DNA of 10,221 nt from Omnitrophica WOR_2 bacterium RIFCSPHIGHO2_02_FULL_52_10 (lineage in GTDB: Bacteria > Omnitrophota > Gorgyraeia > Zapsychrales > Zapsychraceae): positions 1 through 10,221 of the forward strand of contig MHGR01000088.1 in the NCBI GenBank assembly GCA_001805655.1, written 5' to 3'. A model generated the notes under the pieces. The model saw only the letters and a program-made list of their open reading frames with translations, searched no databases and had not been told where the DNA came from. The translations under genes and the position numbers were made by a program. Shown here one piece after another: positions 1 to 10,221 of the stretch; within the stretch, counting starts at the first letter, position 1; each line of letters starts with the position of its first letter.

Positions 1-20
1 CCCGCTTAAAGCATGCGGGG
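1..20. repeat. REP-like palindromic hairpin at the left edge
   Basis: CCCGC (1-5) pairs with GCGGG (15-19) around a loop that contains the palindrome GCATGC, followed by GATGACA. Short GC-rich palindromes ending in a GGGGATGACA-like tail are common dispersed intergenic repeats in many bacterial genomes. This suggests the left edge lies in an intergenic repeat, just upstream of a gene start, and may be where the assembly broke. There is no T-tract, so it is not a clear intrinsic terminator. The element is cut by the window edge. Confidence 0.5.
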
Positions 21-29
21 ATGACAAAA

Positions 30-44
30 AGAGGTTATGAAATG
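30..44 (+). promoter_or_regulatory. Ribosome binding site and ATG start of the long plus-strand frame
   Basis: AGAGG at 30-34 lies 7 bases upstream of ATG 42. Another in-frame ATG at 21 overlaps the edge of the hairpin repeat and has no purine-rich site before it. An out-of-frame ATG at 37 opens only 20 codons. ATG 42 is therefore the best start for the segment at 42-555, although the frame is also open back to position 3. Confidence 0.5.
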
Positions 45-555
45 GCTTCTAGATATTCATCCGGAGAGCCCCGTGTTACCGGTTCGGTTGTTCGTGTAGG
101 CAAAGGCGTGGTCAACCTAAGTCGTGATGCGATACCGATGACGTTTAAGCAGCTCGCTGAGAAGCTTTGTTTGACACCGCAGGAGGGTGAGCGTCTGTGG
201 CGTTCAGTCGAGGCGCTCGCTCTGCAGGCATACCGCGCGATTCAATCTCACATTGAAGAAACGCAGACGGATCGGGAGAGGGGATTGGGAATTGTTCCGC
301 TTCAGGATTTCGTGGGCGAGGATATCATTGTGGATGAAATGATGTCACCGTACATCATGGAAATGGATGATCACCGGGCAGGCGGATACTGGCATCTCAA
401 TCAACTTGTTGATGAAGCCTCACGAGGGGAGGTCATCAGGCCCTGGATTCAAACAGCGATAATACGGTCCATTGAACACCTTAGGAGAAAGAATAAAGAC
501 ATTTCTGTTTCTGATTCCAGCTCGCCGGTGGAGGCAGATGCGCGGGAAAAATCAC
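42..555 (+). other. N-terminal segment of the long frame, unknown function
   Basis: About 170 residues starting MASRYSSGEPRVTGSVV, with codon use typical of real coding sequence. The middle (FKQLAEKLCLTPQEGERLWR onward) looks alpha-helical and acidic. It continues through IVPLQDFVGEDIIVDEMMSP to a basic helix with IEHLRRKNKDI. It ends in the linker motif SSSPV (516-530), 30 bases before the convergent toxin stop codon. No signal peptide or membrane helix is seen, and I do not recognise the family. The frame has no stop of its own. Either this is the true N-terminus of the giant protein, or it is the 5' part of a gene whose end was lost when the minus-strand block arrived. Confidence 0.5.
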
Positions 556-3500
556 TAGGCTATTTCTTTATGCGGTATTTATTGCGGTCTACGATAATAA
601 GTGATTTTTCTATTTCGGAAGGCTTAAGTTTTTTAAGCAGCGCTATTAAAATTCTATGGACATCATTTATTGCCTGGGGCGCGTCTAATCTTGGCCTTAA
701 AACAATAATGCCTGGATGGGAGCCTAAAGGGTACAGGATAAGGTTGCTAAAGTCTAAATCATTGGTAACAATTACTGTCTTTTCTTTATTAGCAATATTT
801 ATAACCGCGCCATTGCTGGAAGAAGTTTTGCCTAATTCATGGAGAGTTATAATTGGGAATCCTTCTTTCTTAAGCAACTTCGCCGTTTGGCCTAAGACAC
901 ACTCATCAATCAGTAGTTTCATCTTAGCGGGCTTTTATTTCTTCAAAGAAGTGAACTTCTTCGTTCTTGACCAATTGATTGGCATAGGCAATGCAGGCGT
1001 AGACATCTTGAAGGGTTATTCGGGGGAAATAATTTTCACCAATTATTTCTTCAGGTTTAATTCCGGTGGACAGCAGATCCAGTATTTGCCAGACCATTAT
1101 GCGATGGCCTTTTATGCAGGGTTTGCCATGGCATATGTTTGGATTTATGGAAATATGTTCCAAAATATTTTTCATCTTTTTATCTCCGGTGTCAATGTAT
1201 CATTTAGACCTGGAAAAGTCAAGCCTGAGCTTTTTATCTCCAATGCTCACTCCAGCTCGCCGGTCGCAGTGAAAGCTGTCCGTCATCGGCCGTCAGCCGT
1301 CAGCAATATGATCCCAACCAACCGGCGCGGCGGGCACGAGTTTGTTATTACGGCTGATGAAGCGCAAATGGATGTCAACGGCCCGCGCGGGCCGCCGGAC
1401 AGCCTTTATGCCAGAGCAACTTCCATGCGGGACAATCGCACAGCGTGGTTCTTTAGGATGCCCTTGATCTCAACGATGTCGGTCTTGACTCATTCGACGG
1501 CGCCCAAGCCCCGCTCTGAAGAGCGGGGAAAAAGGCGCCGCTCAGAGTCAACCCTGAGTCCCTCGACTTCGCTCGGGATGGTGAGCTTGTCGAACCACAA
1601 GCCCCGCCATTTATGGCGGGGAGAGTCGAATGGGTTGACTACCCGCATATCGTCCTTGAGGGTGCTCACATCTTCCTTAAGAAAACGCACGTCAGTTTTT
1701 AATACGAACAACTACTCTTTCCGGCAGCCGAGTTCAGCAAACATCATATCGAATTTGCTTCTCAGATTGTTCAGACCTTCTACCAATACATCGAATCTGC
1801 TGTGGAGATCTTCCAGGATGACCGCGAACTCTCTGTCCCTGTCGAATGGATTGGTTTCTCTTCTCATCATGTCGGCTTCTCCTTTTGCTGCGGGTTTAAG
1901 GGGAGGGGATGTTCAAGGGAAGAGGGGCATCACTATAGAGCCGAAAGATATATTTGTCAAACTCTCCGTGGAAACAGAGGCTGAAAAGAGGGAGGCCGGG
2001 CGTGTGGCGCGCTTGGCCTCCAGCCCTGTTACCGATAAAGCCGAACCGCGCGTGTTCCGGACTCCGGCGGCGAACCTGCTGGTGGCGGTTGCGGCTGGTC
2101 TGTTAGCCGCGTCAATGATCCTGCCAGAGGCGCTGCAGGCGGCGGAGGCATTGGCCGATTCGTCCTGGCCCGTCCCGTATATTAGAGATCTTATCGGCTT
2201 CTTTACGGGGCCCGCCGCAGCGCCGGGGGTTGATCTCGGTAATTTTACCCCGTTGTTTGCCTTAGCCGTGGGTCAAAGAACTTACGGAGGGGTTCCATTG
2301 GCACAACACTGGGATGAGCAATATAGCAGCCGTCTTAGTGCCGGCATCGGGAAAAAACTAAACTTAAAATTATTTATTCATGATCGTTCCATTCAGTATG
2401 GATCGATGCCTATTGTCTGGGAAAGCTGGTATTGGCCCAAAGGTGAGGGGGTAACAGCCCTTGTCCGGTTCGGCCCATTGTTTTTCTTGGAGGAGAAAGC
2501 CCAATCCCGTTTGAGCCCGGCGCTGAAGAGGGAACTGGGCGCAAACGTGATTTGGATCGCGGATTTTAGAAAAAACTGGCTGGGTTCCTTCTTTGGCCAA
2601 GAACACCCGCTTTTGGTCATCACTCTTATGCTCAACATGGATCTTGCCGGGAAGCGGCTTATTGATGCCGGGTCAGGCGACGGCCTATTATCCTTGGTCG
2701 GCGCAAAACTGGGGGCCTCCACGTTGGATTTGATTGAAATTGATCCCAAAAGTTCGCAAGAGGCGGAGAAAAACCTTAAGCTTAATGGCTTGAGAATCGG
2801 TGAGCACTACCGGGTTCATAGGGAGGATCTTAATAATACGGAAGCCATCGCCAATAGTCTTGAACAAACCAATAATGAAATTGTCATAGTCTCCAATATT
2901 GGTTACTGGCCGGAATTATATAGCGCAACAAACGCTCAGAGCATCATGCTGATCCCCGCCTTGCAGAGGAAAGGGTTCATCGTCAGAACTTTCATCGGTG
3001 GGGGTTATGCATTGCTTAATGAGGGGTACCGGCAGTTATTTGTTATGGAGAAGGGTGGTGTCTCAGTTGCTCTAAAACAAGAAAGAGCCTTGGTCAAAAG
3101 ATATGGCTTTAGGGTACTTTCTGAAACTGCCAGCCAGTTTAGGTATGAGGAAAAATTTATGGCGTGGGCGGCGACGATGCCGCGGGGCGGACCGATCATC
3201 GCCCGCATTGATAGATGGACGCCGGATGAGAAGGATTGGTTGGGGGAACATGGCTTTATTAAAACACCCGGCGGGTTATTTATTGGTGATGGCAATCCAA
3301 ATAGCTCTGGTGGCAGTAAACGCAGCGGCGAAGAGAGTAAGCGCTCACGGAAAGATACTACTAATCAGGATCCTGGCCCAGGCTTGGCGGTCGGCTCGGC
3401 TGCGCGGCAAGTTAAACAATTCACAATGGATGAGCTGAAATCTTTGGCGGGCGACACTGATCGGGGCGTGAAATATAACGGCAAGTACTTTCGGGTGACC

Positions 3501-6500
3501 AGCGTTAGCCCCGGCGTGAAGCACATCGGTTCTTTTGAGATGGCGGGAACCTTTGTCGTTTTGGCGCCGCTCAACTCGGAGTTTGAGCCATGGGCAAACG
3601 AAGGGAATGTGACCGCGTTTTTCCCGAACAATCCTGAGTGGCTCTCAAAGTTCGACGTGGTACGTTTCTCCGAAGTTGCAGCGACGCCAAAGCCCGAAGA
3701 GACCCCAAAGAAGAAATTGAGCCCCTGGCCCTATCAGCTGCAAAAGGGACCCAAAAAAGGAAAGCCGGCCGCGCGGCAAACTACGACAGGCTCTGACACC
3801 AAGGAGCCGAATAGCAAGGCGCCTGCCGGCTCAGGACGACGTGGCCCTGGCGTTAAAGAGCGCTATCGTCCTCTCGGCCATGCGTCGTGGCAAGCAGATC
3901 GTCTCACAGGCTGGCCCAAGCCGCGCAGCTCCCGGCCATCCGATCAGCTCTTCGGTGAGAGGGGCCGGGTGAGCCATGCGCGGGGAGACGGCCGGCAGGG
4001 CCGTGGTGGGTTTATCCAATCAGCAGGCGCTGTCATTGATCTTAATGAGTATCGCATGAAACGAAGGGAAAAAATCCAGATAGAGTTCAAAGCATGGATA
4101 ACCGATGTGGCGAGAGTGATCGTTGCGTTGGATCGTGCCGACCGGGAAAAGCTTGGAAAGTTCACAATGATGGCCGCAGCTTTGCATCTAACCCGGGCCC
4201 GTTCGACCTTGGAAGCGGCCGAAAATTTAGCGCAATTCTGGACGGAAGTGCTTGAGAAGTTTTCTGTCATGCGGAAAACCAATCGCCTGACCGTAACTGA
4301 TGCCGAATTTTTTGACTCCTCTTTGAGTCGGCTCAGCAAGGAACTTGCGAGGATAGCTCGCTCCGCCGGCTGGCAGCACGGCACAAAGCGCGGTTTGCGC
4401 CTCCCCACTGTATTATTCTCCGTTCTGGCCGCGCTTGGCCTGCTGGGCGCGGGGATGCTCCTGCCCGAATTGCTGCACGCCGCGCAGGGCGCGGCAATGG
4501 GCGCTGACGCCGTCGTCGGGCGCGTCCTCGGCCTTTGGGAGCGGGCAGGGCTGGTTGCCCTCTGGTTCGGCATGGTGGCGTTCATTGCCGGTGCGGCTGA
4601 AGATCTCTTCCAAGATACAAGAGATCGGCTCTTCCATGCCGCCCGCGACCGGATTTTTACCGAGCGGATAATGTTGGTCAAGCAGGCGATCGCAGGGAAA
4701 TCCTTGAAGCAGCTGCCTCCTCATCCTGCCCAGCGCGTCCTCTTGCGCGCTCTGCAGGCTGCCAAGGACGCCGATCGCGGGGCGTCGAAATATGTTGAGG
4801 CCGCCAGACCCGTGTTATCCTCAGGATCGCTGGGAGCGGGACTGGTCGTATCGGGCTTGGTCATGGCCGCACTCCTTTGGGCCGCCACCGGGTGGACGCA
4901 CGGCATACTTCTCATGCTGAGCGGCGGGTCAGGCATCTGGGGAAGCGCATTGTTTATCCATGCTCGTCGAACAATCAGGCGCCTGTTAAGCCGGATTGAG
5001 CACGGCCCCAGAGGACCAAAGTCCAATGCACACAAGGTCAAGCAAGGGCCTTCGCTTCGGTTAGTGAAGCCGCTTCTAGTCATCTTCGCCATCGCCGGCG
5101 GGCTCCTGGTTGGGATGACGATAGGCGTTGCCGAGATCTCTGCCGAGGTGATCAGGAGCGCCGCCGATTCTTTCCTCTACCTCGCCAGCGGGGAATGGGG
5201 GGCGGTCCGAGAAGTCTGGGCCGTGGCGAGCGTGGTCGGCGGAGTGAATATTGCGGAAAAATTGTTGGCCATTTTGGGGCTGAACCACCCTCGCCCTGTA
5301 GGGGATCCTCAAGTGGAAATCCTTCGGCAACGCCGGACCCATGATCTGATGATCCGGCGCATCCGTCTCCGCCAGCGAGCGAAACCGGCGCAATCTCCGC
5401 AAGGTTTGGAAACTTTACAATTTGAATTGGGCAACGCCGCTACCCTGTTTGATCTTGTCTACGATTCAGCCAGTCATTTGATCGCTGTCATTCCAGCCCC
5501 GGAAGAGGTGAACAGTAGCCGCGCCCGGCCGGTCTATTTTGACTTCTCCCCGTACCATTTCACTCTTCCCCGTTTTGGGGATCCGAATGCGAAAGACCAT
5601 TGGTGCAAGCTGGCTCAGGCGGTCGAGAGACACTATGAGATGCTCCTGGATGAGTTTGAGGACATGTGGTCCTATAACAGTATTGGAGGGGGTGATGCAC
5701 CGTCCTACGTCTACATGGCGATGGATGAGCACACAGGTATGTGGGGAGCTACCGGGTTTAAGCCGGAAACGTTCTCCTTCATTGTCTTCCAGCGGGATGT
5801 GCCAGAGCGGCATCAATTGATCGTGCCACTCTACCCAAAGGTGTATTCCCAAGGGGGGGGGTTGTTGCCCCGCGCCATAGACCGACCATACTACTACTGG
5901 TTACTAACTTCACCTGAACTTAAGGATGACCATGAGGTGTTGGTGATGTGGCCGGGTATGGGTTCGGATTCGTGGTTTATATCGCGGCGGACACACCGCC
6001 CTCTCTGGGCGATCGGAATCAACCCGTTCGAGGTTGCCAACGTGCAGGCGTTCGCCGAGATCGCCGGGTTCACTGTCCATGCCATGGTCGGCGACAATGT
6101 CATTGATGACGCGGGCCGGCCACGGGTTGCGAATAAACAATTTGACTGGGTCTTTTGGGAAATGCCTGCGTACGTCGATCCCAAGGAAACAGATCCCGAT
6201 CATGTCCGTTCCTTTAAGATCGATCGTGGGCTTGCTGGATTTTGGGACTGGGATGAGGAGGGGCGCGTTTTGAGACGGTTTGTGAGGGGTCTTCCCAGCA
6301 TCCTCAAGCCTGGTGGGCGTGCGTTGATTTGGAATACGCCGGGCATTGAAGAAGTTATTCGCAAGATGATCTTTGAGGTCGCCCGGGGATCCCTGGAGGT
6401 GTCCCGCATATCCCAGGATACCTATCTCTACCTTCTGACTCGTTTGGCGGTTGTAATGGTCGTTGTCCTTGGCGGTATCTTGGCCGCGATGATAACAGGC

Positions 6501-9500
6501 GTTACGGAAGTCTCTGCCGAGGCGATCAGGAGCGCCGCCGATCTGACGGCCTACTTGCCCACGGCTCCGCCAATAATGGGATTACAACCGGAAACGATCA
6601 ATCCCGCCTCGTTGGCTTTCTTCGGCATCATCCGGCCGGTAAAGAATCTCCTGCGATATATGAAAATGGCGACAGGCACCTTTTCCTCTGCTCTTGAGGG
6701 AATTGGCGTGATCACGCGTATTCTACGCAAAAGAACAATTGCGCCCGGCAGAGGGCCGGAGGCAATTTCGCAAGGAATGGGAAAGGAACTATCATTGCCA
6801 TTTTCTTTTTCTATGGATTTCCAACAGATGAAAGTTAGGGATGAGTCCTATCGCGTTGCCTATAATATCGAACTTGACGATGGCACAAGAATATGGATTC
6901 TTAGTGACAAGATGGAGCTGATCCATGTTTCAGGAGATCAACAGCAATTGCTCGATAAACATTATTTACTCTCTGATGCTGCGCGCAGGGAAGGGTTAGC
7001 TCAATCTCTTGTCAGAGTTTCGGATGATGTCATTCTCAATCTTGCGCACAGACGCATTCCAATATATGACGACAGGTACGTTCCTGAGGCAGAACCAGGA
7101 TTTTTTGAATATTATTTTGGGGGGATGGATGAGAATATAAGAGCAAGGGATTTGATGCGCCGGCTGTTGCGCATTGACTTTAGCGCTGTGTCGCAAGGCC
7201 AGTGGGATGCTTATCGCAAGAGCTCACACGCCTATTGGCTTATCCAGTTTTCTGAACTTGCGTCGACTATCGAATCCCTGGCGAACTGGTCTAAAGAGCG
7301 CTCCCTCAATCTTCTGGCCAAAAAAATGCAGGCAAGATATCAGCAAAAGCTCAAGAGAATATCGGGCGGTAATTTCATAGAGTTGATCAGGGGCCAGCGG
7401 GGTTCTCATGTGAGCTCAGAAGACAGGATAAGCCCAGCCAGGGAACTGGCATTAGGTATTCCTTGGTCTCTGGCAAAAGTCCAGGGTGTTATTGGAGAAG
7501 AAATGGCTCCTCCACCGGCAGGGCTAGATATTCCAATTCCCGTTGCCTGGGCATTGGTGGAACAACTCAAGCAGGATAACCCTGAGGTTTTCAGTCAATT
7601 GATACCTTTACAGCGGGGAGTGAGCTATCGCGTGAGTCTCTATCCATTGAATAACGGCCGATGGCTGAAAATTAAAGGGGCCATTCATCTTCCAGATTCC
7701 ATTCTTACATTGAATCTGATTAGTGGAGATCCTGACTTTGCGCTTAGCCGGGCAGGGCTTGAAGGTGAATTTAGCAGGCTCACCAGAATTTGGGAGATTG
7801 CGGGGCACTTGAGGCAGGCCGGTTTGTTGGCACATTCCTTGCCTGTGGGCTTACCGCGGCCGGTGAGCGCAATGACGCTGAAATATCCCGTTTCCGAAGT
7901 TCCCTACATTGGGTCTAAAGAATTAACGGTGGTTCCTATCGGCATTAGTGTAACAGAAGAAAACCCCTTGCGTTTTGACGGTTTGTTCTTGGGCGAGCCC
8001 GCGCCTAACCAGCTCGCAAAGTATTTTGATTCTGAAGGGAAGTGGAATGAATTCGAGAAGGGATTTGAAAAATATGGCGTGGCGGTGAGCTTAATCCATT
8101 TAGCCGGTTACCAGCACGGACATCTGCATCCCGGCAATGTTACCCCTGAAGAGCTCACCGATTTTGAAAGCCTTAATTTTGTAGAGCCAGGGCAAGAGGT
8201 CCAGGCCTTATACACTGAACTCAGGCAATTTTTGTATTTTCACCCTGGCCTCTTCAGAGGGACCTCGGGGTTGTTATGGAGTCTGCATATTGCCCACCTG
8301 CTTCCGGAGGTTCCAACATACATCCGTGAATTCTACGATAAGAGCCAGTCCGCAGAAGTGTTGGATACTTTGTGGATGAGAGCTTTTGTAAAGGGGCTGT
8401 TCCTTGGTGAGGAAGAAAGGGCCAATTGGGTCATAGAACAAGTGAAGCACGATATTGCGCCAACCGCTGATGAGTTAGTCAAAAAGACAAGCAGTTTCAG
8501 CGGATTTAAATCATTTATTGATTTATTTGTAGGACGATTGGCCAAGGAAGTTTACGCCTATTTAGCCAAGGTTAACAAAGAAAATAACGGACGCATTTTT
8601 AAGACCGCTCTCATCACGACGTTTTTAGCCATTATTATCGCCGCGATCATCCATCCCTTTGGCGTTCCTGTGACTGAAGCCGTTGAGGCGGCTGTGGCCT
8701 TGGCCAACGCATCCTGGCCCACCGCCCCGCCAGCCCCGTACGATACTCTTTCGCAATTGTTAGATTTTACGGGGCTGGCAAAAGGATTATCATCAAAAAA
8801 GATCGACCTCACCTCGCTTGTAATGTTCGGCCTGCCGGTAAAGAGATGGTCGGGAAAGAAGAAACAGGTGAGTGAGCAAGCCCGAAGGTCGCGTCGAACC
8901 ATCAGCCAGTGGAGCAGCTTTAGGTTTTTCCATTCAAAAAAGGACATGGCTGAATATCTCGCTCAATTGAGCTCAAAGGAAGATGAACGTGAATTGGGAG
9001 GGCATTACGAACATGGCGAAGGAAAAAGCTGGCGATTATTTATTACAGGCAGCGGTTTCCATAGCGTGCATAGGAATAATCCTAAAGACGCCGTTGGTTT
9101 CTGGCACATTCATCCCAGGAAACATATGTTGTTGGAGTATTCTAGATTGAAGCACCTGGCGTCCCTGAATGATTTGGTTGTAGTCTTAAAAAACAAAAGG
9201 GAGGAAATGATTGGCTTGAGCCCTTCCGAGACGGTTGTGCTTAAGTATTCCATTGGTGTACGTGAACATGCGAGGGCGCAATTTCTTAAACTAGCTGCCA
9301 AAGCTATAAAGAATTATTATATGTTTTCTCATGGTACTCCTCGCTATGGCATCCAGTACCTTTTCGGGAAAGAATTAAATGAATTGATTATGGAAGGAGG
9401 AATCAAAGATTTACCAAAATCACTGAGTGAGAGTATTAAACGAGAAGGCTATAGTGAAAACAACTGGAGGGATTTTGTTAAATACCTGGGGCTAAAATTG

Positions 9501-10221
9501 AAAAGTTATGACATAGCCTCGTCGCTCGCAGGAAAAAAAGGGACAGACACTATTGTCTCGATATTCATTGCTGCATTTATCGGCTATTTTGCCGCGGGGA
9601 TGCTCCTGCCCGAATTGCTCCACGCCGCGCAGGGCGCGGCAATGGGCGCTGACGCCGTCATCGGGCGCGTCCTCGGCCTTTGGGAGCGGGCAGGGCTGGT
9701 TGCCCTCTGGTTCGTCATGGTGGCGTTCATTGCCGGTGCGGCTGAGGATCTCTTCCAAGATACAAGAGGCCGGCTCTTCCATGCCGCCCGCGACCGGATT
9801 TTTACCGACCGGATAATGCTGGTCAAGCAGGCGATCGCAGGGAAATCCTTGAAACAGCTGCCTCCTCGCCATGCCCAGCGCATCCTCTCGCGTGCTGAGC
9901 GGGCGGCCAAGGACGCCGATCGCGGGGCATCGAAATATGTTGAGGCCGCCAGACCCGTGTTGGCGTCAGGATCGCTGGGAGCGGGACTGGCCGTATCGGG
10001 CTTGGTCATCGCCGCCCTCCTTTGGGCCGCCACCGGGTGGACGCACGGCATACTTCTCATGCTGAGCGGCGGGTCAGGCATCTGGGGAATCGCATTGTTT
10101 ATCCATGCTCGTCGAACAATCAACCGTCTGTTAAGCCGGATTGAGCACGGCCCCAGAGGACCAAAGTCCAATGCACACAAGGTCAAGCAAGGGCCTTCGC
10201 TTCGGTTAGTGAAGCCGCTTC
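42..10221 (+). CDS. Giant modular membrane-associated protein, 3' end beyond window
   Basis: One frame is open over 3,393 codons without a stop and continues past the right edge. Domain order in residues counted from Met 42: N-terminal segment 1-170; doubtful stretch 173-650 antisense to minus-strand genes; membrane module about 675-745; PrmA-like methyltransferase about 750-1085; beta-rich domain and basic linker about 1100-1325; helical region to 1450; six-helix membrane domain 1455-1750; second methyltransferase-like domain about 1790-2125; membrane module 2130-2210; unknown region to about 2520; kinase-like domain to about 2735; membrane module 2850-2940; HxHP domain about 2960-3165; second membrane domain from 3170. 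Codon use looks coding at 42-555 and from about 1900 on. The true start may be ATG 42 or GTG 2004 (good ribosome site). Very long modular ORFs are known from Omnitrophota and some other lineages. Overall function is unknown. Only one Cys codon (5604) occurs after 2004. Confidence 0.8.
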   Translation, partial: MASRYSSGEPRVTGSVVRVGKGVVNLSRDAIPMTFKQLAEKLCLTPQEGERLWRSVEALALQAYRAIQSHIEETQTDRERGLGIVPLQDFVGEDIIVDEMMSPYIMEMDDHRAGGYWHLNQLVDEASRGEVIRPWIQTAIIRSIEHLRRKNKDISVSDSSSPVEADAREKSLGYFFMRYLLRSTIISDFSISEGLSFLSSAIKILWTSFIAWGASNLGLKTIMPGWEPKGYRIRLLKSKSLVTITVFSLLAIFITAPLLEEVLPNSWRVIIGNPSFLSNFAVWPKTHSSISSFILAGFYFFKEVNFFVLDQLIGIGNAGVDILKGYSGEIIFTNYFFRFNSGGQQIQYLPDHYAMAFYAGFAMAYVWIYGNMFQNIFHLFISGVNVSFRPGKVKPELFISNAHSSSPVAVKAVRHRPSAVSNMIPTNRRGGHEFVITADEAQMDVNGPRGPPDSLYARATSMRDNRTAWFFRMPLISTMSVLTHSTAPKPRSEERGKRRRSESTLSPSTSLGMVSLSNHKPRHLWRGESNGLTTRISSLRVLTSSLRKRTSVFNTNNYSFRQPSSANIISNLLLRLFRPSTNTSNLLWRSSRMTANSLSLSNGLVSLLIMSASPFAAGLRGGDVQGKRGITIEPKDIFVKLSVETEAEKREAGRVARLASSPVTDKAEPRVFRTPAANLLVAVAAGLLAASMILPEALQAAEALADSSWPVPYIRDLIGFFTGPAAAPGVDLGNFTPLFALAVGQRTYGGVPLAQHWDEQYSSRLSAGIGKKLNLKLFIHDRSIQYGSMPIVWESWYWPKGEGVTALVRFGPLFFLEEKAQSRLSPALKRELGANVIWIADFRKNWLGSFFGQEHPLLVITLMLNMDLAGKRLIDAGSGDGLLSLVGAKLGASTLDLIEIDPKSSQEAEKNLKLNGLRIGEHYRVHREDLNNTEAIANSLEQTNNEIVIVSNIGYWPELYSATNAQSIMLIPALQRKGFIVRTFIGGGYALLNEGYRQLFVMEKGGVSVALKQERALVKRYGFRVLSETASQFRYEEKFMAWAATMPRGGPIIARIDRWTPDEKDWLGEHGFIKTPGGLFIGDGNPNSSGGSKRSGEESKRSRKDTTNQDPGPGLAVGSAARQVKQFTMDELKSLAGDTDRGVKYNGKYFRVTSVSPGVKHIGSFEMAGTFVVLAPLNSEFEPWANEGNVTAFFPNNPEWLSKFDVVRFSEVAATPKPEETPKKKLSPWPYQLQKGPKKGKPAARQTTTGSDTKEPNSKAPAGSGRRGPGVKERYRPLGHASWQADRLTGWPKPRSSRPSDQLFGERGRVSHARGDGRQGRGGFIQSAGAVIDLNEYRMKRREKIQIEFKAWITDVARVIVALDRADREKLGKFTMMAAALHLTRARSTLEAAENLAQFWTEVLEKFSVMRKTNRLTVTDAEFFDSSLSRLSKELARIARSAGWQHGTKRGLRLPTVLFSVLAALGLLGAGMLLPELLHAAQGAAMGADAVVGRVLGLWERAGLVALWFGMVAFIAGAAEDLFQDTRDRLFHAARDRIFTERIMLVKQAIAGKSLKQLPPHPAQRVLLRALQAAKDADRGASKYVEAARPVLSSGSLGAGLVVSGLVMAALLWAATGWTHGILLMLSGGSGIWGSALFIHARRTIRRLLSRIEHGPRGPKSNAHKVKQGPSLRLVKPLLVIFAIAGGLLVGMTIGVAEISAEVIRSAADSFLYLASGEWGAVREVWAVASVVGGVNIAEKLLAILGLNHPRPVGDPQVEILRQRRTHDLMIRRIRLRQRAKPAQSPQGLETLQFELGNAATLFDLVYDSASHLIAVIPAPEEVNSSRARPVYFDFSPYHFTLPRFGDPNAKDHWCKLAQAVERHYEMLLDEFEDMWSYNSIGGGDAPSYVYMAMDEHTGMWGATGFKPETFSFIVFQRDVPERHQLIVPLYPKVYSQGGGLLPRAIDRPYYYWLLTSPELKDDHEVLVMWPGMGSDSWFISRRTHRPLWAIGINPFEVANVQAFAEIAGFTVHAMVGDNVIDDAGRPRVANKQFDWVFWEMPAYVDPKETDPDHVRSFKIDRGLAGFWDWDEEGRVLRRFVRGLPSILKPGGRALIWNTPGIEEVIRKMIFEVARGSLEVSRISQDTYLYLLTRLAVVMVVVLGGILAAMITGVTEVSAEAIRSAADLTAYLPTAPPIMGLQPETINPASLAFFGIIRPVKNLLRYMKMATGTFSSALEGIGVITRILRKRTIAPGRGPEAISQGMGKELSLPFSFSMDFQQMKVRDESYRVAYNIELDDGTRIWILSDKMELIHVSGDQQQLLDKHYLLSDAARREGLAQSLVRVSDDVILNLAHRRIPIYDDRYVPEAEPGFFEYYFGGMDENIRARDLMRRLLRIDFSAVSQGQWDAYRKSSHAYWLIQFSELASTIESLANWSKERSLNLLAKKMQARYQQKLKRISGGNFIELIRGQRGSHVSSEDRISPARELALGIPWSLAKVQGVIGEEMAPPPAGLDIPIPVAWALVEQLKQDNPEVFSQLIPLQRGVSYRVSLYPLNNGRWLKIKGAIHLPDSILTLNLISGDPDFALSRAGLEGEFSRLTRIWEIAGHLRQAGLLAHSLPVGLPRPVSAMTLKYPVSEVPYIGSKELTVVPIGISVTEENPLRFDGLFLGEPAPNQLAKYFDSEGKWNEFEKGFEKYGVAVSLIHLAGYQHGHLHPGNVTPEELTDFESLNFVEPGQEVQALYTELRQFLYFHPGLFRGTSGLLWSLHIAHLLPEVPTYIREFYDKSQSAEVLDTLWMRAFVKGLFLGEEERANWVIEQVKHDIAPTADELVKKTSSFSGFKSFIDLFVGRLAKEVYAYLAKVNKENNGRIFKTALITTFLAIIIAAIIHPFGVPVTEAVEAAVALANASWPTAPPAPYDTLSQLLDFTGLAKGLSSKKIDLTSLVMFGLPVKRWSGKKKQVSEQARRSRRTISQWSSFRFFHSKKDMAEYLAQLSSKEDERELGGHYEHGEGKSWRLFITGSGFHSVHRNNPKDAVGFWHIHPRKHMLLEYSRLKHLASLNDLVVVLKNKREEMIGLSPSETVVLKYSIGVREHARAQFLKLAAKAIKNYYMFSHGTPRYGIQYLFGKELNELIMEGGIKDLPKSLSESIKREGYSENNWRDFVKYLGLKLKSYDIASSLAGKKGTDTIVSIFIAAFIGYFAAGMLLPELLHAAQGAAMGADAVIGRVLGLWERAGLVALWFVMVAFIAGAAEDLFQDTRGRLFHAARDRIFTDRIMLVKQAIAGKSLKQLPPRHAQRILSRAERAAKDADRGASKYVEAARPVLASGSLGAGLAVSGLVIAALLWAATGWTHGILLMLSGGSGIWGIALFIHARRTINRLLSRIEHGPRGPKSNAHKVKQGPSLRLVKPL
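516..529. repeat. Left 14-bp direct repeat flanking the toxin-antitoxin block
   Basis: TCCAGCTCGCCGGT here is identical to 1251-1264, exactly 735 bp (245 codons) downstream, and both are read in the plus frame as SSSPV. The two copies bracket the AT-rich toxin-antitoxin operon together with its promoter. They could be a target duplication, a homologous recombination scar in a recurring linker, or two genuine copies of a linker motif. Confidence 0.75.
560..922 (-). CDS. DUF5615 PIN-like toxin of a type II toxin-antitoxin pair
   Basis: A 120-residue protein of the DUF5615 (COG4634, Mut7-C-like PIN fold) family, at normal family length. It begins MKLLIDECV, matching the first acidic strand of PIN-like nucleases (D6, E7). 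It has the family block VIVTNDLDFSNL at residues 50-61 (T53, N54, D55, D57), followed by HPGIIVLRPR (69-78). The C-terminus is a basic tail, VDRNKYRIKK. Members are predicted Mg-dependent RNases that act in the cytoplasm and are held inactive by the partner DUF433 protein. Its ATG lies 1 base after the antitoxin stop (TAAGATG), implying translational coupling. No strong ribosome site of its own is visible. The gene is clearly more AT-rich than flanking DNA, which fits horizontal acquisition. It is antisense to the open plus frame. Confidence 0.93.
   Translation of the reverse strand: MKLLIDECVLGQTAKLLKKEGFPIITLHELGKTSSSNGAVINIANKEKTVIVTNDLDFSNLILYPLGSHPGIIVLRPRLDAPQAINDVHRILIALLKKLKPSEIEKSLIIVDRNKYRIKK
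924..1175 (-). CDS. DUF433 antitoxin, partner of the DUF5615 toxin
   Basis: An 83-residue DUF433 (COG2442) protein with the full family signature: ISINPNICHGKPCIKGHRI at residues 8-26, then ILDLLSTGIKPEEII (31-45), then YFPRITLQDVYACIAYA (49-65). DUF433 proteins carry a helix-turn-helix-like DNA-binding fold and usually neutralise the adjacent DUF5615 toxin and repress their own operon. The start is supported by GGAG 8 bases upstream (rev. comp. of 1184-1187) and by a sigma70-type promoter at 1194-1222. The antitoxin-first order with a 1-base gap to the toxin is standard for this pair. Its codons are exactly register-aligned with the antisense plus frame. That frame stays open only because the gene uses no TTA or CTA Leu codons and no TCA Ser codons. 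Confidence 0.93.
   Translation of the reverse strand: MKNILEHISINPNICHGKPCIKGHRIMVWQILDLLSTGIKPEEIIGENYFPRITLQDVYACIAYANQLVKNEEVHFFEEIKAR
1176..1187 (-). repeat. 12-bp direct repeat copy 1, overlapping the antitoxin ribosome site
   Basis: CTTTTTATCTCC on the plus strand (GGAGATAAAAAG as read by the operon) contains the antitoxin ribosome binding site. An identical copy lies at 1230-1241, so the pair brackets the promoter. They may be operator half-sites for autoregulation or the trace of a small duplication. Confidence 0.5.
1194..1222 (-). promoter_or_regulatory. Sigma70-type promoter of the toxin-antitoxin operon
   Basis: Read on the minus strand, TTGACT (1222-1217) is followed by a 17-base spacer and TACATT (1199-1194). 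The start codon is about 20 bases further on. Spacing is ideal and both hexamers are close to consensus. Confidence 0.65.
1230..1241 (-). repeat. 12-bp direct repeat copy 2, upstream of the promoter
   Basis: CTTTTTATCTCC is identical to 1176-1187 and sits just upstream of the -35 hexamer on the minus strand. The position would suit a repressor or antitoxin binding site, but that role is an inference. Confidence 0.45.
1251..1264. repeat. Right 14-bp direct repeat flanking the toxin-antitoxin block
   Basis: Second copy of TCCAGCTCGCCGGT, again reading SSSPV in the plus frame. After it the frame continues as VAVKAVRHRPSAV and then GGHEFVITADEAQMDV up to about 1400. That stretch has no antisense gene and could be genuine coding sequence of the giant protein. 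Confidence 0.75.
1380..1393. other. 14-bp perfect GC palindrome downstream of the coiled-coil pseudogene
   Basis: GGCCCGCGCGGGCC is a perfect palindrome lying 12 bases past the minus-strand pseudogene stop. It could be a terminator stem, but no T-tract follows on either strand and there is no loop. Confidence 0.3.
1485..1490. repeat. Target-site duplication, left copy (TTGACT)
   Basis: TTGACT directly precedes the element at 1491-1634 and is repeated directly after it at 1635-1640. In the reconstructed coiled-coil gene only one copy is needed, which supports a 6-bp target duplication. Confidence 0.7.
1491..1634. mobile_element. 144-bp MITE/REP-like palindromic element inserted in the coiled-coil gene
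   Basis: The element carries terminal inverted repeats CATTCGAC (1491-1498) and GTCGAATG (1625-1632) and is flanked by the 6-bp duplication TTGACT. Inside are two strong hairpins: CCCCGCTC/GAGCGGGG (1509-1516/1521-1528) and CCCCGCCAT/ATGGCGGGG (1602-1610/1613-1621). A longer-range pair, TCGAC/GTCGA, lies at 1563-1567/1589-1593. It has no coding capacity, so any transposase must act in trans. The inner sequence (CTCGACTTCGCTCGGGATGG) resembles GC-rich palindromes dispersed between genes in several bacterial genomes. Element plus duplication is 150 bp, a multiple of three, and the plus frame remains open through it. Confidence 0.7.
1635..1640. repeat. Target-site duplication, right copy (TTGACT)
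   Basis: Identical to 1485-1490, at the other border of the element. Confidence 0.7.
1987..2006 (+). promoter_or_regulatory. Alternative start of the giant gene: AGAGGGAGG plus GTG 2004
   Basis: AGAGGGAGG at 1987-1995 lies 8 bases before GTG 2004, which is in the long frame and would give a start reading (M)ARLASSPVTDKAEP followed by the first membrane segment. This is a stronger ribosome site than that of ATG 42. It lies downstream of all the antisense genes, so the giant protein may really begin here. The alternative ATG 1869 has no ribosome site. Confidence 0.4.
2055..2280 (+). other. Membrane module 1 of the giant protein
   Basis: Arg-flanked hydrophobic helix NLLVAVAAGLLAASMIL (2073-2123), followed by PEALQAAEALADSSWP (2124-2171), then a Pro/Gly loop and a second hydrophobic stretch, FTPLFALAVG. 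The layout (basic flank, 17-18 apolar residues, Pro, then small residues with an AxA pattern) resembles a signal peptide with its cleavage region. It recurs before other domains of this protein. It is preceded by the linker ASSPVTD (2016-2036). Confidence 0.6.
2281..3300 (+). other. PrmA-like class I methyltransferase domain
   Basis: A Rossmann-type SAM-dependent methyltransferase core like that of ribosomal protein L11 methyltransferase (PrmA). FFGQEHPLLVITL precedes motif I RLIDAGSGDGLLSL (nucleotides 2655-2696). The second strand LDLIEIDPKS ends with the expected acidic residue for the SAM ribose, and AEKNLKLNG follows as in PrmA. The motif IV region is IVIVSNIGYWPEL (2880-2918), where PrmA proteins usually have a D-x-x-x-A-N strand. 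An N-terminal extension of about 110 residues (VGQRTYGGVPLAQHWDEQ onward) precedes it. The glycine-rich SAM loop is intact, so the domain could be active. The substrate is unknown. It sits directly after a membrane module, unusual for a methyltransferase. Confidence 0.7.
3301..4020 (+). other. Small beta-rich domain and long basic, Pro/Gly-rich linker
   Basis: A Ser/Lys-rich linker (NSSGGSKRSGEESKRSRKD) leads into a compact segment from FTMDELKSLAGDTDRGVKYN (3420) through GKYFRVTSVSPGV and GTFVVLAPLN to FDVVRFSEV (about 3670), predicted mostly beta. From about 3675 to 4010 the sequence is rich in Lys, Arg, Pro, Gly and Ser (TPKPEETPKKK, RGDGRQGRGG) and is likely disordered. I recognise no family. 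Confidence 0.5.
4021..4392 (+). other. Charged alpha-helical segment
   Basis: About 120 residues, including NEYRMKRREKIQIEFKAWI, DRADREKLGKF, ARSTLEAAENLAQFWTEVL and SRLSKELARIARSAG. They are strongly helical and amphipathic, possibly helical-bundle or coiled-coil forming. It links the disordered linker to the six-helix membrane domain. No catalytic motif is seen. Confidence 0.45.
4448..5076 (+). repeat. 629-bp in-frame direct repeat, copy 1
   Basis: Aligned without gaps to 9593-10221 at an offset of 5,145 bp (1,715 codons), with about 30 mismatches (about 95% identity). Mismatches cluster around 4711-4755. The left boundary is sharp: just upstream the two copies diverge inside the first membrane helix. 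The right boundary is unknown because copy 2 meets the window end. Confidence 0.95.
5136..5168 (+). repeat. 33-bp repeat encoding the ISAEVIRSAAD signature, copy 1
   Basis: Differs from 6510-6542 at only two positions and is in the same frame. It encodes ISAEVIRSAAD directly after a membrane helix. The surrounding DNA is much less similar, so this tract has been copied or conserved locally. Confidence 0.8.
5400..6420 (+). other. Second methyltransferase-like domain, with degenerate SAM motif
   Basis: The order of elements fits a class I methyltransferase: strand and loop EVLVMWPGMGSDSW (5934-5975) at the motif I position; WAIGINPFEVANVQAFAEIA after the second strand; HAMVGDNVIDD; the motif IV-like FDWVFWEMPAY (6141-6173); and LPSILKPGGRALIW (6291-6332), the typical strand 5 region. 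Motif I lacks the usual D/E-x-G-x-G form and the acidic end of strand 2 is Asn. SAM binding is therefore uncertain and it may be a pseudoenzyme. The N-terminal 170 residues (LETLQFELGNAATLFDLVYD onward) are unfamiliar. It carries the only Cys codon (5604) I find after 2004 and a run of nine G at 5853-5861. Confidence 0.5.
5853..5861. repeat. Nine-base G homopolymer inside the giant gene
   Basis: GGGGGGGGG lies exactly in register as three Gly codons (SQGGGLL). Tracts of this length can slip during replication and switch genes on and off, and they are also prone to sequencing error. Confidence 0.8.
6427..6670 (+). other. Membrane module 2 of the giant protein
   Basis: Arg-led helix LAVVMVVVLGGILAAMITGV (6444-6503), followed by TEVSAEAIRSAADLTAYLPT and APPIMG, then a second hydrophobic stretch, PASLAFFGII (about 6604-6633), and RPVKN. 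Same order as module 1 and the module at 8592. It separates methyltransferase-like domain 2 from the next soluble region. Confidence 0.6.
6510..6542 (+). repeat. 33-bp repeat encoding the VSAEAIRSAAD signature, copy 2
   Basis: 31 of 33 bases match 5136-5168. The encoded residues follow a membrane helix in both places. Confidence 0.8.
6671..7600 (+). other. Soluble region of unknown function
   Basis: About 310 residues, more AT-rich than the preceding membrane module. Recognisable stretches are a beta-like SYRVAYNIELDDGTRIWIL, a helical DMRR-type part (NIRARDLMRRLLRIDFSAV), a coiled-coil-like stretch (ASTIESLANWSKERSLNLLA, then KKMQARYQQKLKRI), and a Pro-rich joint (EEMAPPPAGLDIPIPV). No family is recognised. 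The sharp change in composition suggests a different origin from its neighbours. It may include the front part of the kinase-like domain that follows. Confidence 0.4.
7601..8250 (+). other. APH/protein-kinase-like domain with HGHLHPGN catalytic loop
   Basis: HGHLHPGNV at 8115-8141 matches the catalytic loop of aminoglycoside-phosphotransferase-like and ABC1-like kinases (usual form HGDLHPGN), with Asn 8136 in the metal-binding position. TDFESL at 8157-8174 follows where these kinases have the metal-binding DFE/DFG. A possible nucleotide-binding lobe lies upstream: WLKIKGAI (7662-7685, Lys at the VAIK position), then a helix with Glu, EGEFSRLTRIWEIAGHLRQA (from 7761), then a strand TVVPIGISV. 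The catalytic Asp is replaced by His. The loop between Asn and DFE is short (7 residues). It may be a pseudokinase or a kinase with unusual chemistry. Substrate unknown. Confidence 0.5.
8251..8591 (+). other. Alpha-helical segment after the kinase-like domain
   Basis: About 113 residues containing SGLLWSLHIAHLLPEVPTYI, FVKGLFLGEEERANWVIEQV and FIDLFVGRLAKEVYAYLAKV. It is mostly helical and acidic. It is probably the end of the helical C-lobe of the kinase-like domain plus a connector to the next membrane module. Confidence 0.4.
8592..8880 (+). other. Membrane module 3 of the giant protein
   Basis: Basic lead RIFK, then a helix of ALITTFLAIIIAAIIHPFGV (8607-8666), then TEAVEAAVALANASWP (8673-8720) and PPAPYDTL, then a short apolar stretch TSLVMFGLPV (about 8814-8843) and a basic KRWSGKKKQ. 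The signature has 10 of 16 residues identical to PEALQAAEALADSSWP of module 1, with recognisable DNA similarity around TCCTGGCCC. Confidence 0.6.
8881..9548 (+). other. HxHP-containing domain, possibly JAB/JAMM-like
   Basis: A predicted beta strand leads into VGFWHIHPRKH (9093-9125), which looks like the HxHP zinc-binding core of JAB/JAMM metalloproteases. It is followed by LVVVLKNKREEMIGLSP, like the next strands of that fold. The Ser and Asp expected 7 to 10 residues after the second His are not at the canonical spacing, since the nearest match is EYSRLK. Upstream are GHYEHGEGKSWRLFITGSGF and acidic residues that might act as the JAMM Glu. A helical tail follows (AQFLKLAAKAIKNYYMFSHG to LGLKLKSYD). 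The region is AT-rich compared with the membrane copies around it. Assignment to JAB is tentative. Confidence 0.35.
9549..10221 (+). other. Six-helix integral membrane domain, copy 2 (cut by window end)
   Basis: The first helix starts with unique sequence (TIVSIFIAAFIGYFAAG) and then joins the repeated sequence GMLLPELLHAAQGAAMGADA. The following helices match copy 1 almost residue for residue. Substitutions concentrate in the stretch around SLKQLPPRHAQRILSRAERA. The window ends before the fifth helix. Confidence 0.65.
9593..10221 (+). repeat. 629-bp in-frame direct repeat, copy 2 (runs to the edge)
   Basis: Partner of 4448-5076 at about 95% identity. The last 94 bases (10128-10221) are completely identical to copy 1. 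That is the kind of exact repeat at which a short-read assembly stops, so the right edge may be an assembly break. Confidence 0.95.

What the first reader, a model, noticed from the sequence alone, without database searches (positions are those of the whole stretch)
2055..10221. Recurrent membrane/signal-peptide-like modules punctuate enzyme-like domains: possible processed bacterial polyprotein
At 2073, 4407, 5073, 6444, 8607 and 9552 a basic flank and hydrophobic helix is followed by a related Ala/Glu signature (PEALQAAEALA, PELLHAAQGAA, AEISAEVIRSAAD, TEVSAEAIRSAAD, TEAVEAAVALA). Each resembles a signal peptide with an AxA cleavage region, and each mostly precedes a new soluble domain. The protein could be stitched through the membrane many times, or cut by signal peptidase into separate enzymes. 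I know of no described bacterial system that does this with methyltransferase and kinase-like modules. The polyprotein reading is inference.
Basis: partly seen in the sequence, partly recalled or inferred. Interest (0 to 1): 0.85.

Follow-up and report, generated by a model that had tools for sequence, protein, structure and literature searches.

The report
Tag-punctuated giant proteins in Omnitrophota bacteria
The window is an inner piece of a giant, membrane-bearing, many-domain bacterial protein, and giant proteins of this genome and its relatives are divided by short repeated peptide tags that look like cutting sites, which would make them bacterial polyproteins if the cuts are real.

Summary
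One frame is open across the whole 10,221-base contig (3406 codons). The six basic-hydrophobic-Ala/Glu modules are there: two clear homologous pairs and a weaker third, 17 K/R before against 2 after, AxA in 5 of 6. But 4407 and 9552 open multi-pass units, so 'a signal peptide before each soluble domain' is too simple.

The stronger punctuation was missed. Giant frames of this Omnitrophota genome carry SSPV/I/L 69 times against 1.35 in shuffles, with 30 codon spellings for 48 SSPV; the window has three, at 519, 1254 and 2019. Of the 120 best N-domain relatives (of 1836), 45 use SSP[VIL], 46 D.AM, 1 both, 28 neither, at the same two homologous positions. Tags avoid annotated domains (1 of 95 inside, 15.4 expected).

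Best explanation: exported modular polyproteins cut at lineage-specific tags by an unidentified protease. The tags are shown; the cutting is inferred. The window's tag-free tail (2733 aa) may be an uncut membrane part.

The parts
3..10220 (+). giant open frame, 3406 codons, open at both contig ends
   Evidence: best codon score in 32 of 33 windows
519..530 (+). SSPV tag 1
1254..1265 (+). SSPV tag 2
2019..2030 (+). SSPV tag 3; starts 16 residues before the first hydrophobic module
560..922 (-). DUF5615 PIN-like toxin gene, antisense inside the giant frame, between tags 1 and 2
   Evidence: E 5.1e-20
924..1175 (-). DUF433 antitoxin-like gene, antisense inside the giant frame
   Evidence: E 1.1e-22
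1649..1936 (-). decayed antisense coiled-coil gene (stops in its own frame) between tags 2 and 3; relatives on C117
   Evidence: tblastn 35% identity, E 1e-6
2067..2123 (+). hydrophobic module A1, followed by PEALQAAEALA at 2124
2625..2900 (+). PrmA-like methyltransferase domain
   Evidence: E 2.7e-6
4407..5075 (+). module B1, multi-pass membrane unit; copy of 9552-10220
5073..5129 (+). hydrophobic module C1, followed by AEISAEVIRSAAD
5925..6338 (+). HemK2/MTQ2-like methyltransferase domain (below the curated cut-off)
   Evidence: E 9.5e-5
6447..6503 (+). hydrophobic module C2, followed by TEVSAEAIRSAAD
8115..8138 (+). HGHLHPGN kinase-like motif, read by eye only
   Evidence: position; no Pfam match
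8595..8651 (+). hydrophobic module A2, followed by TEAVEAAVALA at 8673
9096..9170 (+). GFWHIHPRKH JAB-like motif, read by eye only
   Evidence: position; no Pfam match; best PDB E 0.33
9552..10220 (+). module B2, second copy of the multi-pass unit, cut by the contig end

Best explanation
The window is an internal piece of a giant, membrane-bearing, many-domain protein of an Omnitrophota bacterium. Giant proteins of this genome and its relatives are chains of enzyme-like and unknown domains divided by short protein-level tags ([AST]SSP[VIL] in this genus, D.AM[LVTM][ASGT] in others); those with the N-domain start with an export signal. The tags most likely are recognition and cutting sites of a dedicated protease that releases the domains, so the chains are bacterial polyproteins. 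The hydrophobic modules of the window are membrane units with signal-anchor-like orientation; they hold that part in the membrane and may add signal-peptidase cuts. Shown: tags, their position, restriction and dialects. Inferred: cutting, the protease, and export of the window's own chain, whose start is not in hand.
For: SSP[VIL] 69 in 21,474 aa of frames of 650 aa or more on seven G000 contigs, 1.35 in shuffles; 3 in 59,423 aa of 185 other ORFs on 12 contigs. 30 codon spellings among 48 SSPV and 27 among 27 SS[SP]phi tags of G018 contig C20: constraint on protein, not DNA. Tags inside selected Pfam stretches 1 of 95, 15.4 expected; none of 20,000 circular shifts as low. Same-genus G002 and G004 and same-family G007 share SSP[VIL]; G012, G006 and G016 use D.AM. 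In the best 120 of 1836 N-domain relatives: 248 SSP (10.6 expected), 269 D.AM (13.8); 45 SSP only, 46 D.AM only, 1 both, 28 neither; Fisher P 1.6e-12. Same homologous places: within 80 residues after the N-domain own tag in 26 of 44 and 34 of 48 (8.9 and 7.6 at random), other dialect's tag once; within 40 before the C-terminal GGID own tag in 29 of 41 and 19 of 44 (3.8 and 3.1), other dialect's tag never. No sequence preference beyond 5-6 residues; flanks more disorder-prone than random places (0.143 and 0.135 against 0.089 and 0.083). Hydrophobic stretch before the N-domain in 82 of the 87 proteins whose N-domain start was recognised. Antisense inserts of the window lie between tags.
Against: No cut was observed. 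The window's last 2733 residues have no tag (Poisson P 1.5e-4 at the genome's giant-frame density). 28 of 120 relatives fit neither dialect; G029, G032, G036, L102 and L117 show no clear tag. G018 holds both kinds of tag, in different frames. No protease is tied to tags: M48 peptidases are in 15 of 15 genomes, and the five M48-bearing relatives carry only 0-2 tags of either kind. No match of the N-domain to a solved fold was found. Four of the seven G000 contigs (C12, C31, C47, C127) were chosen by an SSPV pattern, which inflates the density.
Confidence: 0.55

Rival explanations
1. The tags are not cut. They are linkers, binding sites or modification sites (S-P is a phosphorylation-like motif) in giant proteins that stay whole as surface structures, as proposed in print for Omnitrophota giant ORFs.
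For: PMC10066038 (passages) describes giant ORFs as a possible coat or adhesins; flanks are linker-like; no cut is observed.
Against: Two unlike motifs, SSP[VIL] and D.AM, replace each other at the same homologous places and almost exclude each other per protein, which suits a recogniser that changed specificity better than one modification type.
Confidence: 0.3
2. Signal peptidase cuts at the window's hydrophobic modules, and that is the only processing of this chain.
For: 17 K/R before and 2 after the six modules; AxA in 5 of 6; no tags in this part.
Against: 4407 and 9552 are multi-pass, 5073 has no AxA, three tags stand upstream in the same frame, and the module profile hit only contigs C88 and C89.
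Confidence: 0.1
3. The open frame is partly spurious or an assembly artefact, and tags are repeated DNA elements.
For: Part of the first 2 kb lies over antisense genes. Synonymous resampling leaves the DUF5615 gene open in the giant frame in 15 to 30 of 100 draws and the DUF433 gene in 7 to 36, or always when its own codons are permuted. The contig ends in a repeat.
Against: Tag codons vary freely; the frame scores best in 32 of 33 windows; the antisense coiled-coil has stops in its own frame while the giant frame stays open; relatives have giant frames bounded by stops, such as 8764 codons on G018 contig C20.
Confidence: 0.03

Closest known systems
Giant ORFs of Omnitrophota (Velamenicoccus archaeovorus 39,678 aa, 42 predicted transmembrane helices; PMC10066038, passages seen)
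   Same: Phylum, very long frame, many hydrophobic segments, few annotated domains.
   Different: The passages seen name no tags, no processing and no shared N-domain; the window's frame is cut by contig ends, so its full length is unknown.
Viral and eukaryotic polyproteins cut by sequence-specific proteases (general knowledge)
   Same: Independent domains in one chain with a short recurrent motif at the borders.
   Different: Bacterial, several to many chains per genome, lineage-specific motif dialects; cutting not shown.
Cytochrome b/c1 precursor fbcH of Bradyrhizobium, cut by signal peptidase (recalled, not from a call; the search found no paper)
   Same: Precedent for an internal signal-like segment processed between two bacterial proteins.
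   Different: One junction only; no tags, no enzyme arrays.

Membership tests
Omnitrophota giant ORF | genome belongs to Omnitrophota | tested here: met
Omnitrophota giant ORF | frame longer than 20 kb (threshold of PMC10066038) | tested here: inconclusive
   10.2 kb, open at both contig ends; the right end is an assembly break in a 93-base exact repeat
Omnitrophota giant ORF | multiple hydrophobic (transmembrane-like) segments | tested here: met
   13 segments
Processed polyprotein | recurrent motif at domain borders | tested here: met
   for 15 giant frames of five genomes as a set: 1 of 95 tags inside the Pfam stretches used, 15.4 expected; the window itself has 3 tags, all before 2031
Processed polyprotein | cleavage at the motif | not testable with these tools
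   needs proteomics or biochemistry
Processed polyprotein | a cognate protease | tested here: inconclusive
   Trypsin_2 domain in giant frame C31; M48 in 15 of 15 genomes, not discriminating
Internal signal peptides cut by signal peptidase I | basic N-flank, hydrophobic core, AxA after it | tested here: inconclusive
   flank charge 17 to 2 over six modules, AxA 5 of 6; two modules multi-pass; no signal-peptide predictor available
DUF433/DUF5615 toxin-antitoxin pair | adjacent DUF433 and DUF5615 genes on one strand | tested here: met
   both above the curated cut-off

The most novel reading that the evidence does not exclude
Omnitrophota make many exported bacterial polyproteins per genome, including extra copies of glycolytic enzymes, and cut them at a short tag whose spelling (SSP[VIL], D.AM, SS[SP]phi) changes between lineages and even between protein classes of one genome, implying co-evolving tag-specific proteases: a dialect-coded polyprotein system in bacteria.
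Probability: 0.45. Interest if true: 0.93.

Novelty: new variant of a known kind. Interest (0 to 1): 0.85.

Why it matters
Giant genes of Omnitrophota are known but unexplained; PMC12057145 (passages) says the integrity of such proteins after transcription is unclear. The tags turn that into a direct test: do peptide ends fall at SSP[VIL] or D.AM? If yes, bacteria have a polyprotein strategy mostly linked with viruses and eukaryotes, with motif dialects that could expose the protease. If no, the tags still help to parse largely unannotated giant proteins into domains.

Tried and rejected

Limits. The SSP regex came from C89 and C117, the D.AM regex from G012, G006, G016, G010 and nDJH6bin18. 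For the position test the N-domain end was recognised in 115 of 120 and the C-terminal GGID in 110 of 120, with slightly wider tag patterns. The border test used one best stretch per Pfam family in 15 frames; frames without a match, HEAT_2, AAA_14 and SPATA1_C matches and the second aldolase were left out. The 185 control ORFs may include non-genes. ORFs under 650 aa were left out of the tag counts, among them the 442-aa C117 frame with 2 SSPV.

Full report
What is in the window. The window is the whole contig C88 (10,221 bases) of a 1.56-Mb, 137-contig assembly G000, 76% complete. One + frame is open from end to end, 3406 codons. It scores best of six frames by the genome's codon usage in 32 of 33 windows of 450 bases. 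The right end is not biological: the last 93 bases are identical to the earlier copy of a repeat.

The six modules. They are related in pairs: 4407/9552 and 5073/6444 clearly, 2073/8607 only by a 50-base DNA repeat (72%), with no protein match listed between them. A seventh copy lies on contig C89. A profile of the seven finds no other hit at E<=1 in the giant frames fetched or in 120 relatives. The six carry 17 K/R in the 15 residues before and 2 in the 15 after, against 14 and 12 for the other seven segments; AxA follows 5 of 6, against 29 of 98 internal segments of other giant frames. So they look like N-inside signal anchors. But 4407 and 9552 begin multi-pass units, and 5073 has no AxA. 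Copies 4407 and 9552 differ with dN/dS about 0.53 over 669 bases, including a poorly alignable first 60 bases, so selection on the protein is only weakly indicated.

Enzyme-like parts. A PrmA-like methyltransferase and a HemK-like methyltransferase below its curated cut-off are supported. The kinase-like (8115) and JAB-like (9096) motifs are my reading by eye; Pfam gives nothing.

The antisense inserts. On the minus strand a DUF433/DUF5615 pair lies at 560-1175, and a decayed coiled-coil gene, related to two copies on contig C117, at 1649-1936. The first lies between SSPV tags at 519 and 1254, the second between 1254 and 2019. The giant frame stays open through both. For the toxin-antitoxin genes this is not significant by synonymous resampling. 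The coiled-coil has stops in its own frame but none in the giant frame.

The tags. Contigs C89 and C117 of the same genome, found by module similarity, also hold giant frames, and these contain SSPV repeatedly. A degenerate pattern for SSPV matched 66 times in the genome, against 16 for the reversed control, clustered on a few contigs. Of 15 further contigs fetched, four (C12, C31, C47, C127) hold giant frames of 1992 to 3589 codons with 5 to 10 SSPV each. In all, frames of 650 codons or more on these seven contigs hold 69 SSP[VIL] in 21,474 residues (1.35 in shuffles); 185 other ORFs on 12 contigs hold 3 in 59,423. Four of the seven contigs were chosen by the pattern, so the density is inflated; C88, C89 and C117 were not. 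Codons vary: 30 spellings for 48 SSPV.

Where the tags sit. On C127 and C47 and C89 they fall between class-I aldolase, triosephosphate isomerase, phosphoglycerate kinase, histidine phosphatase, UDP-glucose pyrophosphorylase and PLP-enzyme domains. Over 15 frames of five genomes, 1 of 95 tags is inside a Pfam best stretch (at the edge of ThiG), 15.4 expected; none of 20,000 circular shifts gives as few.

Relatives. C127 begins with a signal-peptide-like segment and an N-domain of about 350 residues for which Pfam gave nothing and NCBIfam only one chance-level match. It was found in 34 of 37 genomes of the order (32 in the listed rows, G020 and G034; not in G019, G024, G026). Copies vary: two matches in G000, eight in G027, 16 in G090; the first look gave up to 106 candidates in one genome, of which eight were scored. 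Across the phylum 5 of 58 genomes have it, three of them outside the order. The protein collection gave 1836 N-domain proteins in the length range searched; 120 were listed. Their Pfam lists name many different enzyme families, among them phosphoglucose isomerase, phosphoglycerate kinase, triosephosphate isomerase, starch synthase, pyruvate-phosphate dikinase domains, protein kinase and methyltransferases (names or recalled). G002 and G004, of the same genus, are Candidatus Omnitrophota isolates RS_8_54 and Zod_Metabat.1316 by shared letters. G004's giant frames hold phosphoglucose isomerase, phosphofructokinase and phosphoglucomutase.

Two dialects. SSP[VIL] is enriched in G000 (69 against 1.35), G004 (19 against 0.18), G002 (18 against 0.35) and G007 (7 against 0.17); D.AM[LVIMTSA] in G012 (32 against 0.95), G006 (18 against 0.67), G016 (13 against 0.38), G018 (13 against 1.5) and L089 (5 against 0.16), more weakly in G010, nDJH6bin18 and G041. 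G018 also has 6 SSP (0.91). G029, G032, G036, L102 and L117 show none clearly. Of 120 relatives, 45 have two or more SSP only, 46 D.AM only, 1 both, 28 neither. Within 80 residues after the N-domain, 26 of 44 SSP-class and 34 of 48 D.AM-class proteins have their own tag (8.9 and 7.6 at random); within 40 before the C-terminal GGID, 29 of 41 and 19 of 44 (3.8 and 3.1). The other dialect's tag was there once in the first place and never in the second; proteins of neither class had a tag in 4 of 23 and 2 of 25. In G018, four giant frames of contig C20 use SS[SP]phi (27, 2.5 expected, 27 spellings) and no D.AM, while its five N-domain frames use D.AM (13, 0.7 expected) with 4 SS[SP]phi (0.6 expected). 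Beyond five or six residues no position is informative.

Mechanism. A short motif at domain borders, constrained as protein, replaced by another motif at the same place in other lineages, in chains with an export signal, is what a protease site would look like. I think cutting most likely, at about 0.55. It is not shown. Uncut linkers or modified sites are the main rival. For the window's part after 2031, which has no tag, an uncut membrane part, or signal-peptidase cuts, remain open.

What the enzymes do. G000 also has an ordinary stand-alone triosephosphate isomerase (257 codons), and a stand-alone phosphoglucose isomerase was found in four of five genomes of the genus, so those giant copies are extra. 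The C127 isomerase looks circularly permuted: the first strand with the GN.K motif follows the rest (the first-strand match itself is below significance). Function is unknown; an exported metabolic or binding role is inference.

Known work. PMC10066038 (passages) reports giant ORFs in 77 of 116 Velamenicoccia genomes and the 39,678-residue protein; PMC12057145 (passages) calls the integrity of such proteins unclear; PMC11573180 (passages) ranks the phylum among those rich in huge proteins. Ten paper searches listed nothing that I could see on tags. Novelty: giant ORFs are known and polyproteins are known elsewhere; the tag code joins them, hence a new variant.

Noticed in passing
L043 (contig C127) 8454-9344: Triosephosphate isomerase in a giant frame appears circularly permuted: strand 1 (FVAGNNKTKK) follows the C-terminal part (the match for that strand is below significance).
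   Followed up: partly
window 560-1175, minus strand: DUF433/DUF5615 toxin-antitoxin pair nested antisense in the giant frame, AT-rich (GC about 0.38).
   Followed up: partly
L014 (contig C117) 5117-5623 and 5967-6335; window 1649-1936: A small coiled-coil gene sits antisense in giant frames three times; on C117 both copies lie beside SSPVDALNADNNQS.
   Followed up: partly
window 1505-1529 and 1598-1622: GC-rich repeat pair, palindromic by eye, read through in frame.
   Followed up: no
L040 (contig C31), residues 1594-1781 of the frame: Trypsin-like peptidase in a giant frame behind a Tat-signal-like RRDFLK segment (signal read by eye); a candidate processing enzyme.
   Followed up: no
34 of 37 genomes of the order: Unnamed N-domain with an export-signal-like start, in several to many copies; no fold match found.
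   Followed up: partly
G041 contig C67: A frame of 16,007 codons (15,516 of them fetched) with 40 hydrophobic segments and only 1 D.AM and no SSP[VIL] word.
   Followed up: no
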